A stretch of 6,127 bases of DNA from positions 1-6,127 of the forward strand of contig JAKAWF010000218.1 of assembly GCA_021817025.1 (NCBI GenBank), in the 5' to 3' direction. Shown here in pieces: positions 1,583 to 6,127 of the stretch. Source of the stretch: a bacterium (lineage in GTDB: Bacteria; Chloroflexota; Dormibacteria; UBA8260; Bog-877). Positions within the stretch are counted from its first letter, which is position 1. Each line of letters opens with the position of its first letter. The position numbers were made by a program, and so were the translations under genes. The notes under the pieces are model-generated. The model worked only from the letters and a program-made list of their open reading frames with translations, had not been told where the DNA came from and searched no databases.

Positions 1583-2353
1583 ATGGTCAATCTCCTCACC
1601 TCTGGAGTGGACACCATCCACGCCTCAGCGCCGGGTCTGCTCCGCGCGGGCCTGCGCCAGGAGCTGGCTGGGCTCCGCAGCGAAGCTGGTGCTGACGGGT
1701 CCATGGTTGACCTCGGCGAGAACCCCGAGGGCTTCATCCTCAAGCCGCACGGGTGGAGGGGCTACCCGATCTGGCTGCGCTCGGCACGGATCGAGCTGAT
1801 GCTGGGCGCAGCCGATCCCTTCCCGCCGGTCTTCGTGCAGTGGCACTCGCCATTCATTCACGCGTACGGGGTTGAGACCGCCGTCGCCATGGTGGAGGGA
1901 TGGCTGAGCGAGGCCGTGCTGGAGGTGATGGGTCCGCTGCGGGTGTCGAGACTCGACCTGTACTGCGACTTCCAGGGTTGGATCCCGGTGGCTCAGGACC
2001 TCTCGGACTTCAGCTGCCGGGCCACTCGCCGCCGGCTCTTCGAAGTTCCCCGTCAGGCGCATCTCAGCGGGCGAAGCTTCTCCGGCTTCACCTTCGGCAA
2101 AGGTGACGTGGTCTGCCGGATCTACGACAAGTCGCTGGAGATGGCGGGCAGGGACCAGCACTGGCAGGAGGAAATCTGGCGGGGCCGCGATCCCGAGCAG
2201 CCCGTCTGGCGGGTCGTTATGTCATCTATAGGGGTGTCCACTCGTTTCGTGTCTCACCGCGAGGAGGCCAAGGGCGAGTCCCACGGTCTCATCCCGGGGC
2301 AGGCCACAATACCGCATGTCCCAGACTGTCCCCCATCACCCCTCTGGGGGTAG
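1583..2353 (+). pseudogene. rep: Replication initiator (Rep_trans type), N-terminal part, cut off by an insertion
   Basis: This is the N-terminal 211 residues of a rolling-circle-type initiator, which would nick the origin and start replication of the excised element. Recognisable Rep_trans features are RVSRLDLYCDF (residues 120-130) and a segment with KGDVVCRIYDKSLEM (173-187), whose RIYDK motif is a family hallmark. Natural sequence runs to PVWRV (207-211). The frame then enters inserted DNA and reads about 45 foreign residues to a TAG at 2351-2353. The expected continuation, EFQFRRRALRAFG, resumes in another frame at 2432. Joining 1583-2214 to 2432-2897 gives exactly 366 codons including stop. 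ATG 1583 is preferred; GTG 1577 overlaps the previous stop. Either the gene is inactive or a 256-aa truncated protein is made. The family call is firm; loss of function is inferred. Confidence 0.8.
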
Positions 2354-2431
2354 GACAGCGGGGTGAGACAGCTCGTCGTAGTCACATAACACCTGCAACC
2401 GTGAGGCACGGTGAGGTGAGCACATAAGGGT
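2215..2431. mobile_element. 217-bp MITE-like insertion inside rep
   Basis: The block between PVWR-GGGT (to 2214) and the resumption of rep (2432) has GGGT at both junctions (2211-2214 and 2428-2431), a possible 4-bp target duplication. The left end has GTTATGT (2216-2222). The right end has inverted copies ACATAAC (2384-2390) and ACATAA (2422-2427), the right pair forming a direct repeat CACATAA 38 bp apart. TGTCTCACC (2250-2258) pairs with GGTGAGACA (2362-2370). Hairpins occur at 2326-2358 (CTGTCC/GGACAG plus C-run/G-run) and 2398-2412 (ACCGTG-AGG-CACGGT). TGTC recurs at 2220, 2235 and 2250, exactly 15 bp apart. No transposase is encoded, so it looks non-autonomous. Repeated terminal motifs with a 4-bp duplication recall IS21-type ends, but I cannot assign a family. 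Group I or II intron hallmarks are not evident. Confidence 0.7.
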
Positions 2432-2897
2432 TGAGTTTCAGTTCCGCCGCCGAGCACTGCGAGCGTTCGGGCTGGAGACCCTCGAGCAGGCGCTCCGGTC
2501 GCGCCAAGGGCTGTGGGAGTACGGGATGGGGTGGATCTCGCTCCGCCGCCCGGGGAAGGACAGCAACCGCTCCCGGTGGCACCAGGATCCGGTCTGGAGC
2601 GAGCTCCGCCGGGCCGAGCTGGGGTCACCATCGTCGCCACTGGTGCGGCTGCGCGTCCGGGCCGCGGCCCAGGAGAGGTTGGTGCGAGGCTTCATCGGCT
2701 ATGCCAGCGCACTTGGGGCGCTCTCCACCGAGGACGACCTTGCGGCGGTGCTGCGCACGGCGGGTTCGCTTGCGACCCGCCACCTCCAGGCGAAGGGGAG
2801 GCACTTCGAGGGGTTGGTGGACGCCAAGCGGGACCGCCTCCGGGCGGAGCGGATGTTCAGGATCACCCCCGACCTGATCTGGGAGGCGGTCCAATGA
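2432..2897 (+). pseudogene. rep: Replication initiator (Rep_trans type), C-terminal part
   Basis: This is the remaining 154 codons of the replication initiator. It runs from EFQFRRRALRAFGLETLEQA through GLWEYGMGWISLR and SRWHQDPVWSELRRAE to LIWEAVQ. 'VWRVE-Q-RRRALR-F' followed by an aromatic-rich 'W-Y-WI-LR' block and 'RW--DP-W' is the usual order in this family, so the join to PVWRV (ending 2214) is convincing. No ATG or GTG occurs in this frame before ATG 2526, which has GGGAG at 2515-2519. A 123-aa fragment (2526-2897) could be translated on its own, keeping the downstream overlap in use. Its TGA (2895-2897) overlaps the xis ATG at 2894. The frame has stayed open without stops, so the disruption is probably recent. 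Confidence 0.8.
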
Positions 2898-3106
2898 CTG
2901 AAAAGCTGCTCCTCAACGTGGATGAGGCCGCCCACCTGCTCGGGTGCAGGCGGACCTACCTCTATGGAATGATCCAGCGGGGAGAGCTACCTGTCGTCAA
3001 GCTGGGCCGGCTGACCCGCGTCCCGGCGGCAGCGGTCGAAGGTTACGTGCGTGAGCGGTGGGAGCGATCGCCACTGGTAGGCTTCGGGCCCCCCGAAGAG
3101 CTGTGA
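2894..3106 (+). CDS. xis: Small HTH DNA-binding protein, probable excisionase
   Basis: A 70-aa protein consisting almost entirely of a MerR/AlpA-like winged helix (HTH_17 or excisionase type). LLNVDEAAHLLGCRRTYLYGMIQRGELPVVKLGRLTRVPAAAVEGYV (residues 6-52) shows the usual order: 'V-EAA-LLG--R--LY-MI--GELP--K-GR--R-P--A--'. Length is normal for Xis. Such proteins bend DNA at attachment sites and direct the integrase toward excision. ATG 2894 overlaps the rep stop by 4 nt, and GGGAGG (2881-2886) lies 7 nt ahead. Translation would normally be coupled to rep, so the insertion in rep may lower xis and int expression. The int gene starts 7 nt after its stop, supporting a Xis-Int pair. The fold is clear; the excisionase role rests on position. 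Confidence 0.85.
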   Translation: MTEKLLLNVDEAAHLLGCRRTYLYGMIQRGELPVVKLGRLTRVPAAAVEGYVRERWERSPLVGFGPPEEL

Positions 3107-3113
3107 GTCCGAC

Positions 3114-4226
3114 GTGGCCAAGCGAGCCAACGGCGAGGGCACGATCTACCACCGCAAGGATGGCCGCTGGGAGGCGGCGATCTTCCTGGGCGGGCGCCGG
3201 CATCGGCTGTACGGCTCGACCCGGGAGGCCGTCAACCGGCAGTTGGTGGCCGCGCTCAAGTCTCATGAGGACGGCTTCCTCCCGGGCGGCGGCCGCGAGA
3301 CCTTCGGGCACTACTGGGAGGTCTGGCTGCCTGGAATGCAGCCTCACCTCCGTTCTCGGACCCTGCAGCGATATGAGGAGCTCGGGCGCCTGCACCTGAT
3401 CCCCGTCCTGGGACGGGTGCGCCTGTCGCAAGTCGGACCCCAACACGTGCGTGAGGTTCACCGCCGGATGCTGGATGCCGGGATCAGCCCAACCACGGCG
3501 CACCACGCCCACGCCGTCCTCCATCGCGCTCTCGCCGACGCCGTCCGGTGGGGCATGGTCCCGCGGAACGCCGCCGGACTTGTGCGTCCCCCCAGAATGG
3601 TCAGCGCCGAGATGAGGACCCTGACCTCAGAACAGGTGAAGCTCCTCTGCCGAGCGGCCGCAGAGAGTCCGTTCGAAGCCCTCTACGTGGTTGCGGTCAC
3701 CACTGGCATGAGGCAGGGGGAGCTCCTGGCACTTCGGTGGTCTGCGATCGATCTCGGCCGCCGGACCGTCCAGGTGACCGGCACCGTGACCAAGGTGGGG
3801 TCACAGCTGCTCATCACGCCGCCGAAGACCGCTCGGTCCCGGAGAGCGGTGGTGCTCACGCCTCAAGCCGTGGCCGCGCTGGAGCGCCATCGACTGCGGC
3901 AGGACCAGGATCGGGCGCGGCTCGGAGCCGCCTGGGAAGACCGCGACCTGGTCTTCACGACAGCCGTCGGCGGGCTCCTCGAGCGCGATCAGGTAGTTCG
4001 CCGCGACTTCCTGCCACTGCTGAAGCGGATTGGCCTGCCGCCCGTGAGGTTTCACGATCTACGCCATACGGCGGCGACCTTGCTTCTCAGCCAAGGAGTA
4101 CACCCGAAGGTCGCGAGCGAGATGTTGGGCCACGCCACCGTGGCCATCACTCTGGACCGGTACTCGCACGTCACCGAGACCATGCAGCGCGCCGCAGCGC
4201 AATCGATCGCAGCCCTGCTCGAATGA
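3114..4226 (+). CDS. int: Tyrosine site-specific integrase
   Basis: A 370-aa phage/ICE-type tyrosine recombinase that would integrate and excise the element at the tRNA-Ser site. Residues 1-50 (GEGTIYHRKDGRWEAAIFLG) form an N-terminal arm-binding, AP2-like domain. Residues about 60-160 are the core-binding SAM-like domain (TFGHYWEVWL... SRTLQRYEELGRLHLIPVLG). Residues about 168-370 are catalytic. All key residues are visible: R200 in TTGMRQGELLALRW, K238 in PPKTARSRR, H314 and R317 in HDLRHTAATLL, H340 in MLGHATVAITL and nucleophile Y350 in DRYSHV. Length is typical and the gene looks intact. GTG 3114 is the only sensible start, 7 nt after xis. Integrases of this type in actinomycete elements usually target tRNA 3' ends, matching the tRNA fragment at 5664-5721; cargo of 1.4 kb lies between. 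Confidence 0.96.
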   Translation: MAKRANGEGTIYHRKDGRWEAAIFLGGRRHRLYGSTREAVNRQLVAALKSHEDGFLPGGGRETFGHYWEVWLPGMQPHLRSRTLQRYEELGRLHLIPVLGRVRLSQVGPQHVREVHRRMLDAGISPTTAHHAHAVLHRALADAVRWGMVPRNAAGLVRPPRMVSAEMRTLTSEQVKLLCRAAAESPFEALYVVAVTTGMRQGELLALRWSAIDLGRRTVQVTGTVTKVGSQLLITPPKTARSRRAVVLTPQAVAALERHRLRQDQDRARLGAAWEDRDLVFTTAVGGLLERDQVVRRDFLPLLKRIGLPPVRFHDLRHTAATLLLSQGVHPKVASEMLGHATVAITLDRYSHVTETMQRAAAQSIAALLE

Positions 4227-4418
4227 ACGATCGCTCGGGTCCCAGACCTCTCTCGGAGGCTCGTGGGTCAGACTCAGGGCCAGCAGCTCCTGCCCCAAGG
4301 CAGATCTGCTCGAGGCTCGCTTGCTCGGCACTCCCGCCATCTGATACTTGGAGGGTGCGTAGCTATCAGGGCGCGAACGACCAGTGGCGCGCGGTGCCAC
4401 GGGGGGAGTCGCATCCTC
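4227..4418 (+). promoter_or_regulatory. Intergenic region with a weak candidate promoter for the RelA/SpoT gene
   Basis: This 192-nt gap separates int from the cargo pair. TTGCTC (4321-4326) and GATACT (4343-4348), 16 nt apart, are a weak promoter candidate with a start near 4355. GCGCGAAC (4371-4378) is the reverse complement of 8 bases of the GGTTCGCGC motif shared by the promoters at 72 and 1012; this may be chance. GGGGAG (4403-4408) is the probable ribosome binding site for GTG 4419. I see no convincing terminator for int, so read-through is possible. Confidence 0.35.
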
Positions 4419-5099
4419 GTGCCTGATCGGCCCAATTCCCAGATCGACGCCCTCGGAGAGCGTCTTCGTGGTGGAAGCCGGGCGCCTGGCTGCATCCGGG
4501 AACTGGACAGTTACCGCCGTTCGTTCGTTCCAGCCTACGAGGCGGTCATGGCAAGGATCCGAAGCGAGCTGGACCTCGCTCCAACGGGTCGCCCGGGCAA
4601 GTCAACTGCATCGATAGTCTCCAAGCTGGCTCGGGGATCCATGCGCCTATCGCAGATGCAGGACATCGCGGGCTGCAGAATTATTGTCCTTGACCGCACG
4701 GCCCAAGACAGGCTGGTGGCGGCGTTGTCTCAGCTATTTCCCCAGGTACGGGTCCTTGATCTCCGGGTCAGGCCGAGCCATGGGTACCGTGCCGTACACG
4801 TCGTTCCGATGATCGATGGGTACCGGGTGGAGGTGCAGGTCCGAACGAACCTTCAACACTGGTGGGCAGAGCTATCGGAAACGCTCGCACTTGGCCACGC
4901 AGCGCCGGAACTCAAGTACGGCGGCGACGTTCCCGAGCGGCCGGGAACTCGAGGTCGGTTACTTCTGCTGAGCGACGTGATAGCTGCATTTGAAGAGTCT
5001 CCGGATGACCTCAATCCTATGTCACGATTGGTCACTGCGCTCGGGATCGGTCTGGTCGGGTATACCATGGTGAGCGAAGTGAAGAGGCAACAGCCATGA
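4419..5099 (+). CDS. Small alarmone synthetase-like RelA/SpoT-domain protein, toxSAS candidate
   Basis: A 226-aa single-domain RelA/SpoT nucleotide pyrophosphokinase, counted from GTG 4419. An upstream helical segment (QIDALGERLR... LDSYRRSFVPAYEAV) leads into the synthetase fold: GRPGKSTASIVSKL (57-70, R58, K61, S65, K69, ATP side), DIAGCRI (82-88, metal-binding D82), RPSHGYRAVHV (118-128, the G-loop with stacking Y123), VEVQVRT (137-143, catalytic E138) and HWWAELSE (147-154). No hydrolase, TGS or ACT domain exists, so it cannot remove alarmones itself. Family members make (p)ppGpp; toxSAS members make (pp)pApp or pyrophosphorylate the CCA end of tRNA. The product here cannot be told. Residues 204-218 form an odd hydrophobic tail (LVTALGIGLVGYTMV). 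GTG 4419 is chosen because VPDRP... suits the family and GGGGAG lies 10 nt ahead; a GTG at 4263 would add an implausible 52 residues. Third-position G+C looks lower than in int, suggesting separate acquisition. Confidence 0.88.
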   Translation: MPDRPNSQIDALGERLRGGSRAPGCIRELDSYRRSFVPAYEAVMARIRSELDLAPTGRPGKSTASIVSKLARGSMRLSQMQDIAGCRIIVLDRTAQDRLVAALSQLFPQVRVLDLRVRPSHGYRAVHVVPMIDGYRVEVQVRTNLQHWWAELSETLALGHAAPELKYGGDVPERPGTRGRLLLLSDVIAAFEESPDDLNPMSRLVTALGIGLVGYTMVSEVKRQQP

Positions 5100-5356
5100 G
5101 CCTGTTCTTGATCGTCTACGATCGGGAGGCGGGGCGGTTGGTCGACCTGCGCCAGTTCAGTTCGTCTCAGGGTGAGGCCGCTGTGAAGGCTAGGCTTGAC
5201 TTGGAGTTAGGAGCGTCTCCGAGCACGGAGGTAGTGATCTTGGAGGCCGAATCGGAAACTCAGCTTCGCGCTACCCACGCTCGCTACTTCGGGGACGAGG
5301 CTGTGGACGCCTTGGCCAGCGAGGAGAAGTCCAGGCTAATTCCTCAGCGAGCCTAG
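5096..5356 (+). CDS. 86-aa partner of the RelA/SpoT-like protein, putative antitoxin
   Basis: A small, mildly acidic protein of no family I can name. It starts FLIVYDREAGRLVDLRQF (4-21), has a helical stretch (GEAAVKARLDLEL), then a strand STEVVILEAES (43-53), and a distinctive TQLRATHARYF (55-65). The alternation of strands and helices suggests a compact alpha/beta fold; there is no signal peptide or membrane segment. ATG 5096 overlaps the synthetase stop by 4 nt, and GAAGAGG (5081-5087) lies 8 nt ahead, so the two are co-translated. A hairpin follows 18 nt after the stop. From memory, similar YDR...THxRYF proteins accompany RelA/SpoT proteins in other actinobacteria. Antitoxin or regulatory partner is an inference from the pairing; an accessory role in nucleotide signalling is equally possible. 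Confidence 0.8.
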   Translation: MSLFLIVYDREAGRLVDLRQFSSSQGEAAVKARLDLELGASPSTEVVILEAESETQLRATHARYFGDEAVDALASEEKSRLIPQRA

Positions 5357-5374
5357 TCGGGGGTTCTAGTTGCG

Positions 5375-5398
5375 TCGCCGGAGTTGAAGAGCCGGCGA
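5375..5398 (+). terminator. Terminator-like hairpin after the RelA/SpoT pair
   Basis: TCGCCGG (5375-5381) and CCGGCGA (5392-5398) form a perfect 7-bp GC-rich stem with a 10-nt loop, 18 nt after the stop of the 86-aa ORF. No T-tract follows. Its position suits the end of the bicistronic transcript. Confidence 0.55.
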
Positions 5399-5663: not shown

Positions 5664-5721
5664 CTTGAAAACCGCTGAGGCGGCAACGCTTCCGGGGGTT
5701 CGAATCCCTCTCCCTCCGCCA
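5664..5721 (+). other. attR: 3' portion of a tRNA-Ser(UGA) gene
   Basis: The sequence begins with the anticodon loop CTTGAAA (5664-5670, anticodon TGA 5666-5668). It continues with the 3' anticodon stem ACCGC (5671-5675), a serine-type long variable arm AGGCG-GCAA-CGCTT (5678-5691), a T arm GGGGG-TTCGAAT-CCCTC (5694-5710), the acceptor 3' strand TCCCTCC (5711-5717), G73 and an encoded CCA (5719-5721). The required 5' stem GCGGT is absent: GAGAG precedes the loop, and no D arm or acceptor 5' strand is found. It is therefore not a functional tRNA but the duplicated 3' end left by integration, with crossover at the anticodon loop, a known sublocation for tyrosine integrases. The intact tRNA should lie to the left, outside the window. 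Confidence 0.85.
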
Positions 5722-5950: not shown

Positions 5951-6127
5951 GTGAGTGACGAGGTCACGACGTAGGCACGGATCGCGGACCCAGGGATCTT
6001 CCCGCTGCTCTGGGCTTTGGGGGAGGAGTGGTCCACCGCCGTGCGTGAGGTTTACCGGCGGGTGGTGATCCGGGGCGAGCCGTGGTTCACCCAGGGCAAG
6101 GGCGGAGTCAGGAGCGAGCTGATCGTC
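5951..6127 (+). pseudogene. Partial, possibly broken ORF running off the window end
   Basis: GTG 5951 encodes VSDEVTT, then meets an in-frame TAG (5972-5974). The same frame then stays open to the window end as ARIADPGIFPLLWALGEEW, STAVREVYRRVVIRGEPW and FTQGKGGVRSELIV. The latter looks like real protein (amphipathic helix, then a GKGGV turn) and distantly resembles small terminase subunits of the P27 type, which I cannot confirm. Either the gene carries a nonsense mutation or the true start lies elsewhere. No clear ribosome binding site is present. The intervening sequence 5907-5950 shows nothing. Confidence 0.3.

What the first reader, a model, noticed from the sequence alone, without database searches (positions are those of the whole stretch)
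4419..5356. toxSAS-like bicistron as cargo between int and the attachment site
A stand-alone RelA/SpoT synthetase with all catalytic motifs overlaps by 4 nt an 86-aa unknown protein and ends in a hairpin. Synthetase plus small partner on a mobile element is the layout of toxSAS toxin-antitoxin systems, which act in anti-phage defence or element maintenance. The partner, with YDR and THARYF signatures, belongs to no antitoxin family I know. The toxin's hydrophobic tail (204-218) is also unusual.
Basis: partly seen in the sequence, partly recalled or inferred. Interest (0 to 1): 0.7.

Follow-up and report, generated by a model that had tools for sequence, protein, structure and literature searches.

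The report
PhRel-type toxin-antitoxin pair on mobile element
A small mobile DNA element carries a two-gene unit that looks like a known kind of bacterial phage-defence switch: an enzyme expected to disable transfer RNAs, and a small partner protein expected to keep it off until needed.

Summary
Window 4419-5099 encodes a stand-alone RelA/SpoT synthetase with conserved catalytic residues; 5096-5356 encodes an 86-aa partner overlapping it by 4 nt. Both are under purifying selection and lie between a tyrosine integrase and a tRNA-Ser 3'-half attachment site. The terminal hairpin is no better than chance.

The partner is not of unknown family. It is homologous to ATphRel (gp30 of mycobacteriophage Phrann) and, more distantly, to the C-terminal antitoxin/phage-sensor domain of fused CapRel. 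All 44 evaluable loci among the 47 nearest relatives have the partner downstream; 16 of 18 partner genes found by partner profile in 993 genomes (12 of 14 without the seeds) sit next to or fused with a synthetase.

Best reading: a PhRel/ATphRel-type toxSAS toxin-antitoxin module carried as defence or maintenance cargo, probably tRNA-CCA pyrophosphorylation blocked by the partner at the ATP site. Toxicity, substrate, trigger and fold are untested. New member of a known kind.

Side finding: in one related proteobacterial branch the pair, with a membrane-tailed antitoxin, sits between hsdM and hsdS of type I restriction operons.

The parts
4419..5099 (+). PhRel-like stand-alone toxSAS-type RelA/SpoT synthetase (predicted toxin), 226 aa; hydrophobic tail at residues 204-218
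5096..5356 (+). ATphRel-like 86-aa partner (predicted antitoxin), HXXYF motif at residues 61-65 (HARYF)
3114..4226 (+). tyrosine integrase of the element (context)
2894..3106 (+). excisionase-type HTH protein (context)
5664..5721 (+). 3' half of tRNA-Ser, attachment-site copy at the element's right end (context)
5375..5398 (+). 7-bp hairpin after the partner gene; not more stable than shuffles

Best explanation
The pair is a PhRel/ATphRel-type toxSAS toxin-antitoxin module carried as cargo by a tRNA-Ser-integrating element. SHOWN by sequence: homology of both genes to the published PhRel/ATphRel pair, more distantly to fused CapRel; conserved catalytic residues; close pairing; purifying selection. 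[quoted passage not shown] the partner docks on the synthetase and puts its HXXY motif (His61, Tyr64) into the ATP-donor pocket at R58 and R87, as YXXY does in CapRel and ATfaRel2; phage infection, or loss of the element, frees the toxin, giving abortive defence or element maintenance. The short hydrophobic tail of the toxin may hold the complex at the membrane (weakest step).
For: PADLOC PDC-S33 matches the toxin at model positions 10-193 (E 4.6e-23) and the partner at 265-331 (E 1.1e-4), in the same order. Five fused proteins match PDC-S33 over nearly its whole length, and the one compared with the PDB (L071) matches solved CapRel-SJ46 over residues 18-368 (E 2e-42). Partner profile A2, built without phage rows, finds the four phage partners, Phrann gp30 included, at E 4e-11 to 1.4e-12 and gp30 by hhalign at 98.3%; A2 against fused C-termini P 1.2e-8, probability 95.6%; fused C-termini against CapRel residues 307-370 E 1.1e-8. 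Tree: window and phage PhRel on one side of a branch (96/87), the fused rows on the other. 44 of 44 evaluable loci have the partner downstream. Literature: the Phrann pair defends as a prophage (PMC9262239 passage) and PhRel is named as tRNA-targeting (PMC11559606 passages); YXXY blocks the ATP site (PMC9712102 passages; PMC11782079 sections).
Against: No toxicity, substrate or phage test. Window-to-PhRel identity is only about 35% over 63% of the query. The AU test does not reject window+RelQ (p 0.161). Profile A2 alone does not find CapRel in the PDB: the link runs through the fused family. The first Tyr of YXXY is His here, so mechanism by analogy is not assured. Two of 18 partner genes have no synthetase (L143, L148). 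Fold and docking could not be predicted.
Confidence: 0.82

Rival explanations
1. The module is a toxin-antitoxin system of this fold whose toxin makes (pp)pApp or (p)ppGpp instead of pyrophosphorylating tRNA, so that growth stops through nucleotide depletion or alarmone signalling.
For: FaRel and Tas1 are toxSAS that make (pp)pApp (PMC11782079 section). Substrate cannot be read from the catalytic residues, and the window branch differs from nearly all relatives in the stretch before KYGG (residues 158-159).
Against: (pp)pApp makers described so far are neutralised through the acceptor site by Tis1-like domains, tRNA-targeting ones by pZFD-type domains at the donor site (PMC11782079 section); this partner aligns with the latter type.
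Confidence: 0.13
2. A housekeeping RelQ/RelP-type alarmone synthetase with a regulatory small partner, not a toxin.
For: Best PDB hits of the synthetase by sequence are RelQ (YjbM) chains at 25 bits, with CapRel next at 23 bits; the AU test does not reject a window+RelQ grouping (p 0.161).
Against: Score 80 bits to PDC-S33 against 17 bits to the RelQ model, whose cut-off is 320 and which both RelQ reference rows pass; the free tree places RelQ outside a branch (96/89) that holds all other short-synthetase rows; mobile-element context and sparse distribution (15 of 993 genomes).
Confidence: 0.05

Closest known systems
PhRel:ATphRel (gp29:gp30) of mycobacteriophage Phrann
   Same: Toxin gene first, small antitoxin gene directly after; homologous toxin (35% over 63%) and antitoxin (hhalign 98.3%); THSRYF in gp30 as THARYF in the window; both on mobile DNA.
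   Different: Distant in sequence; the window pair overlaps by 4 nt, its toxin has a hydrophobic tail absent from gp29, and it sits in an integrative element with integrase and excisionase, not shown to be a phage.
CapRel (SJ46) fused toxin-antitoxin
   Same: Same order of domains; partner aligns with the C-terminal antitoxin/sensor region that holds YXXY.
   Different: Two separate proteins here; HXXYF instead of YXXYF; window with the fused rows as one clade is rejected (p 5e-5).
FaRel2:ATfaRel2
   Same: Bipartite toxSAS with a stand-alone antitoxin of the pZFD type (PMC11782079 sections).
   Different: ATfaRel2 is described as suggestive of a circular permutation relative to CapRel's domain; no FaRel2 sequence was in the comparison.
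PADLOC PDC-S33 (phage defence candidate)
   Same: Its single model covers both proteins of the window.
   Different: The model has 349 positions and is matched nearly end to end by fused proteins; the window proteins are separate and match it only in part.

Membership tests
PhRel/ATphRel toxSAS toxin-antitoxin | toxSYNTH domain with ATP-site and G-loop residues | tested here: met
   R58, K61, D82, R87, Y123, E138, R142 identical in 42 of 42 aligned sequences; equivalence of R58/R87/Y123 with CapRel R79/R116/Y155 is my reading of the alignments
PhRel/ATphRel toxSAS toxin-antitoxin | separate antitoxin homologous to Phrann gp30, directly downstream | tested here: met
PhRel/ATphRel toxSAS toxin-antitoxin | groups with PhRel toxins apart from fused CapRel and RelQ | tested here: inconclusive
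   Recovered: 96/87 branch, fused grouping rejected p 5e-5; but RelQ grouping not rejected, p 0.161; no FaRel, FaRel2, PhRel2 or unfused-CapRel rows in the tree
PhRel/ATphRel toxSAS toxin-antitoxin | toxin inhibits growth, antitoxin neutralises by binding | not testable with these tools
   needs expression tests
PhRel/ATphRel toxSAS toxin-antitoxin | tRNA 3'-CCA pyrophosphorylation | not testable with these tools
   needs an enzyme assay
CapRel (fused) | toxin and antitoxin in one polypeptide | tested here: not met
   two ORFs in different frames; unfused CapRel exists too (PMC9712102 passages)
CapRel (fused) | YXXY neutralisation motif | tested here: not met
   HXXY in the window; HxxYF or HxxFF in 46 of 48 stand-alone rows (one further row cut off, one YxxYF), YxxYF in 24 of 24 fused rows
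pZFD antitoxin fold | three-stranded antiparallel sheet with connecting helix | not tested
RelQ/RelP housekeeping synthetase | meets the curated RelQ model | tested here: not met
   17.3 bits against a cut-off of 320; the two RelQ reference rows score 355 and 332

The most novel reading that the evidence does not exclude
The window pair belongs to a broad lineage of two-protein toxSAS modules that is built on an HXXY neutralisation motif and whose complex can be tied to the membrane through either subunit: the toxin's tail in the window branch, the antitoxin's transmembrane tail in a beta/gammaproteobacterial branch. That latter branch is wired into type I restriction-modification operons (hsdM-toxin-antitoxin-hsdS), where the toxin could act as a guard that fires when a phage disables the restriction enzyme, in the manner of PrrC in EcoprrI but by modifying tRNA ends instead of cutting anticodons.
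Probability: 0.25. Interest if true: 0.75.

Novelty: new member of a known kind. Interest (0 to 1): 0.42.

Why it matters
It moves a presumed orphan bicistron into a family with a known mechanism. It extends PhRel-type modules to relatives in records labelled Planctomycetota, Acidobacteriota, Gemmatimonadota, Omnitrophota, Elusimicrobiota and Proteobacteria. It supplies a natural contrast (HXXY in stand-alone, YXXY in fused antitoxins) that makes the neutralisation model testable, and it points to restriction-operon-embedded relatives that could be a second example of a tRNA-targeting guard.

Tried and rejected
Partner as a new antitoxin family: rejected, homology to gp30 and to CapRel's C-terminus. 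Partner as PF14251 (DUF4346): 14 bits against a cut-off of 29.6, not credible. Hairpin as terminator: no better than shuffles, no terminator-like site. Toxin tail as a firm transmembrane helix: the 19-residue mean is 1.28, too low to claim, and L013 has a tail as hydrophobic as L002's. Profile A2 against the PDB gave no CapRel hit, only E above 0.1; a reversed-sequence control gave no hit at E up to 1. L014's partner against plasmids: no match. Membrane-tailed partners in viral contigs: 67 pattern matches, none confirmed. Papers for PDC-S33: none. Structure of the partner and of the pair: could not be run.

Full report
What is there. The window holds a GntR-type regulator (132-917), two reading frames without any family match (1583-2353 and 2526-2897; I take them for pieces of a replication gene, from recall, no call supports it), an excisionase-type HTH (2894-3106), a tyrosine integrase (3114-4226), the synthetase (4419-5099) and the 86-aa partner (5096-5356). 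The synthetase has RelA_SpoT at 46.1 bits (cut-off 27). R58, K61, D82, R87, Y123, E138, Q140 and R142 are identical in 42 of 42 aligned sequences, Phrann gp29 included; L032 was left out of the 43. dN/dS of the window gene is 0.14 and 0.20 for the synthetase (against L001, L002) and 0.13-0.19 for the partner (against L001, L002, L003); among the relatives it is 0.18-0.31, the last from a pair with hardly any change. The two genes overlap as ATGA. The hairpin behind them is not better than shuffles.

The element. L002 is collinear with window 1934-5361, integrase included (92% identical protein), except for about 211 bp (2217-2427) that the window has and L001 and L002 lack. In L001 the stretch 2734-4266 (part of 2526-2897, excisionase and integrase) is missing but the pair is kept; L003 holds the 3' part of the pair. 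Similarity to L001 and L003 ends at 5721, the end of a 3' half of tRNA-Ser (5664-5721); L001 has one more match at 6061-6127. L030 holds a complete tRNA-Ser at 1994-2083 whose 3' part is identical and whose flank matches the window to 5746, together with a remnant of the synthetase; L002's match runs to 5750. The right attachment site is thus well supported; the left one lies outside the window and was not seen.

The partner family. A scan of genome contigs kept 80 of 89 loci. For the best 47 (L001-L047) a homologue of the partner lies downstream in 44. Of the other three, L022 and L045 end at the contig edge and L030 is a synthetase remnant, so 44 of 44 evaluable loci have it. Counted among the 44 are loci with a cut or broken synthetase frame (L003, L024, L031, L034) and L020, whose partner is cut by the contig end. 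A profile of these partners found the same domain fused at the C-terminus of the synthetase in 24 of the remaining 33 loci at E up to 0.001, in records labelled as DPANN archaea, Patescibacteria and Proteobacteria, and as a separate ORF in one more, L073; in eight (L055-L058, L066, L070, L072, L078) it was not found at that level. Five of the fused proteins were scanned and match PADLOC PDC-S33 over nearly its length (377-423 bits); the one compared with the PDB (L071) matches CapRel-SJ46 to residue 368.

The chain of homology. Profile A2 (38 stand-alone partners, no phage rows) finds the partners of phages Phrann, WST1, IME1320_01 and the Pasteurella phage at E 4e-11 to 1.4e-12 among 9178 ORFs, with no hit on reversed sequences; hhalign to gp30 gives 98.3% and to the fused C-termini 95.6%, P 1.2e-8; the fused C-termini match CapRel at E 1.1e-8 over residues 307-370, which include AYPNYF. 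A2 against the PDB directly gives no CapRel hit. In PMC9712102 (passages seen) Y352 and Y355 form the YXXY motif that blocks the ATP site, and the authors already state that CapRel's C-terminus is homologous to ATphRel.

Motif census. 48 stand-alone rows (window, gp30, 44 loci, L081, L073): 45 HxxYF, 1 HxxFF (L012), 1 cut by the contig end (L020), 1 YxxYF (L073). 24 fused rows: 24 YxxYF. Six duplicate loci (L082-L087) were dropped before the count. Many rows are related by descent. In ATfaRel2 the second Tyr is essential and the first less so (PMC11782079 section), which fits His at the first place.

Tree (73 rows). Window, L001 and L002 are one clade (100/100). They fall with 39 further stand-alone rows beside four phage PhRel rows on one side of a branch (96/87); on the other lie 22 rows that I had labelled fused and two plasmid rows (85/81); RelQ and a long RSH lie outside (96/89). 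The two RelQ rows pass the curated RelQ model (355 and 332 bits). One of the 22, L081, was mislabelled by a length rule: it is a stand-alone pair with HxxYF on a long branch, so the stand-alone/fused divide is not perfect; holding L081 with the stand-alone rows is not rejected (p 0.332). Window with the 22 as one clade is rejected (p 5e-5); window+RelQ is not (p 0.161). FaRel, FaRel2, PhRel2 and unfused CapRel were not available.

Linkage without the synthetase as bait. Partner profile A2 was run on 993 genomes drawn from four groups: 18 hits in 15 genomes. 15 hits have a synthetase match directly upstream (some broken or shortened: L109, L112, L113), one is fused (L147), two have none (L143, L148). 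Four of the 18 are the seeds themselves (L108, L116, L145, L146 = L001, L012, L038, L010), so among 14 new hits the figures are 11, 1 and 2. L143 sits 64 nt behind a two-gene defence candidate, PDC-M31A/B. Distribution is sparse, as for mobile cargo; the first look of that search scores only part of its candidates in many genomes, so it may miss some.

Mechanism. For tRNA-targeting toxSAS the antitoxin domain blocks the pyrophosphate-donor site; for (pp)pApp makers a Tis1-like domain blocks the acceptor site (PMC11782079 section). The partner is of the first kind by profile, and PhRel is named as tRNA-targeting (PMC11559606 passages). Phrann gp29/gp30 defends a lysogen against several phages (PMC9262239 passage). 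I therefore commit to tRNA-CCA pyrophosphorylation held off by the partner. Everything after homology, pairing and selection is inference.

Membrane tails. The toxin tail 204-218 is kept in window, L001 and L002 (15-residue means 1.53-1.89) and L003; of the others L013 (1.64) and L011 (1.33) come next, so it is uncommon but not unique by this measure. In the beta/gammaproteobacterial branch (L036-L044, L046, L047) the partner ends in a far more hydrophobic helix (2.25-2.92 in the eight measured, 2.67 for L038; alignment of all 11).

The restriction-embedded branch. Of those 11 loci, nine (L036-L043, L046) have hsdM directly upstream of the synthetase, and eight of these have hsdS directly downstream; L046 shows no hsdS match in its remaining 1.1 kb, L044 and L047 have no hsd match. 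HsdM and HsdS were named by Pfam in L038 and L041; the other loci were matched to those two by tblastn. The branch is one clade (100/100), so these are not independent events. A further search of 369 genomes with the membrane-tailed partners found only L038's own genome and two weak hits (L155, L156) whose neighbours were not examined. PrrC in EcoprrI is the known case of a tRNA-attacking protein embedded in a type I operon (PMC3874165 passage). The listings of my searches for a toxSAS in this place show no paper on it by title or abstract start; most of those papers were not opened, and only openly licensed full texts are held, so this is weak evidence of novelty.

Noticed in passing
L036-L043, L046 (for example L038:2429-6207): PhRel-like toxin and membrane-tailed antitoxin lie between hsdM and hsdS of a type I restriction-modification operon: hsdM upstream in 9 of 11 loci of this branch, hsdS downstream in 8. 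Possible PrrC-like guard.
   Followed up: partly
L143:744-1761 (L151): An ATphRel-like partner with HxxYF but no synthetase match follows the defence candidate pair PDC-M31A/B by 64 nt; remnant or partner swap.
   Followed up: partly
window 2217-2427: About 211 bp absent from the matching region of L001 and L002; this stretch lies between and partly within the two reading frames without family match (1583-2353, 2526-2897).
   Followed up: no
L048-L080: Full-length fused CapRel-like proteins occur in DPANN archaeal records (Woesearchaeota, Pacearchaeota, Aenigmatarchaeota and others).
   Followed up: partly
G001 (genome of L001): L108, L112, L113, L114: One MAG carries four partner loci, two of them with a shortened or frame-broken synthetase (L112, L113).
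   Followed up: no
L081:1162-2459: Stand-alone pair with HxxYF whose synthetase branches, on a long branch, with the fused rows.
   Followed up: partly
L026:4819-5310: Partner with an extra C-terminal extension (164 aa in all).
   Followed up: no
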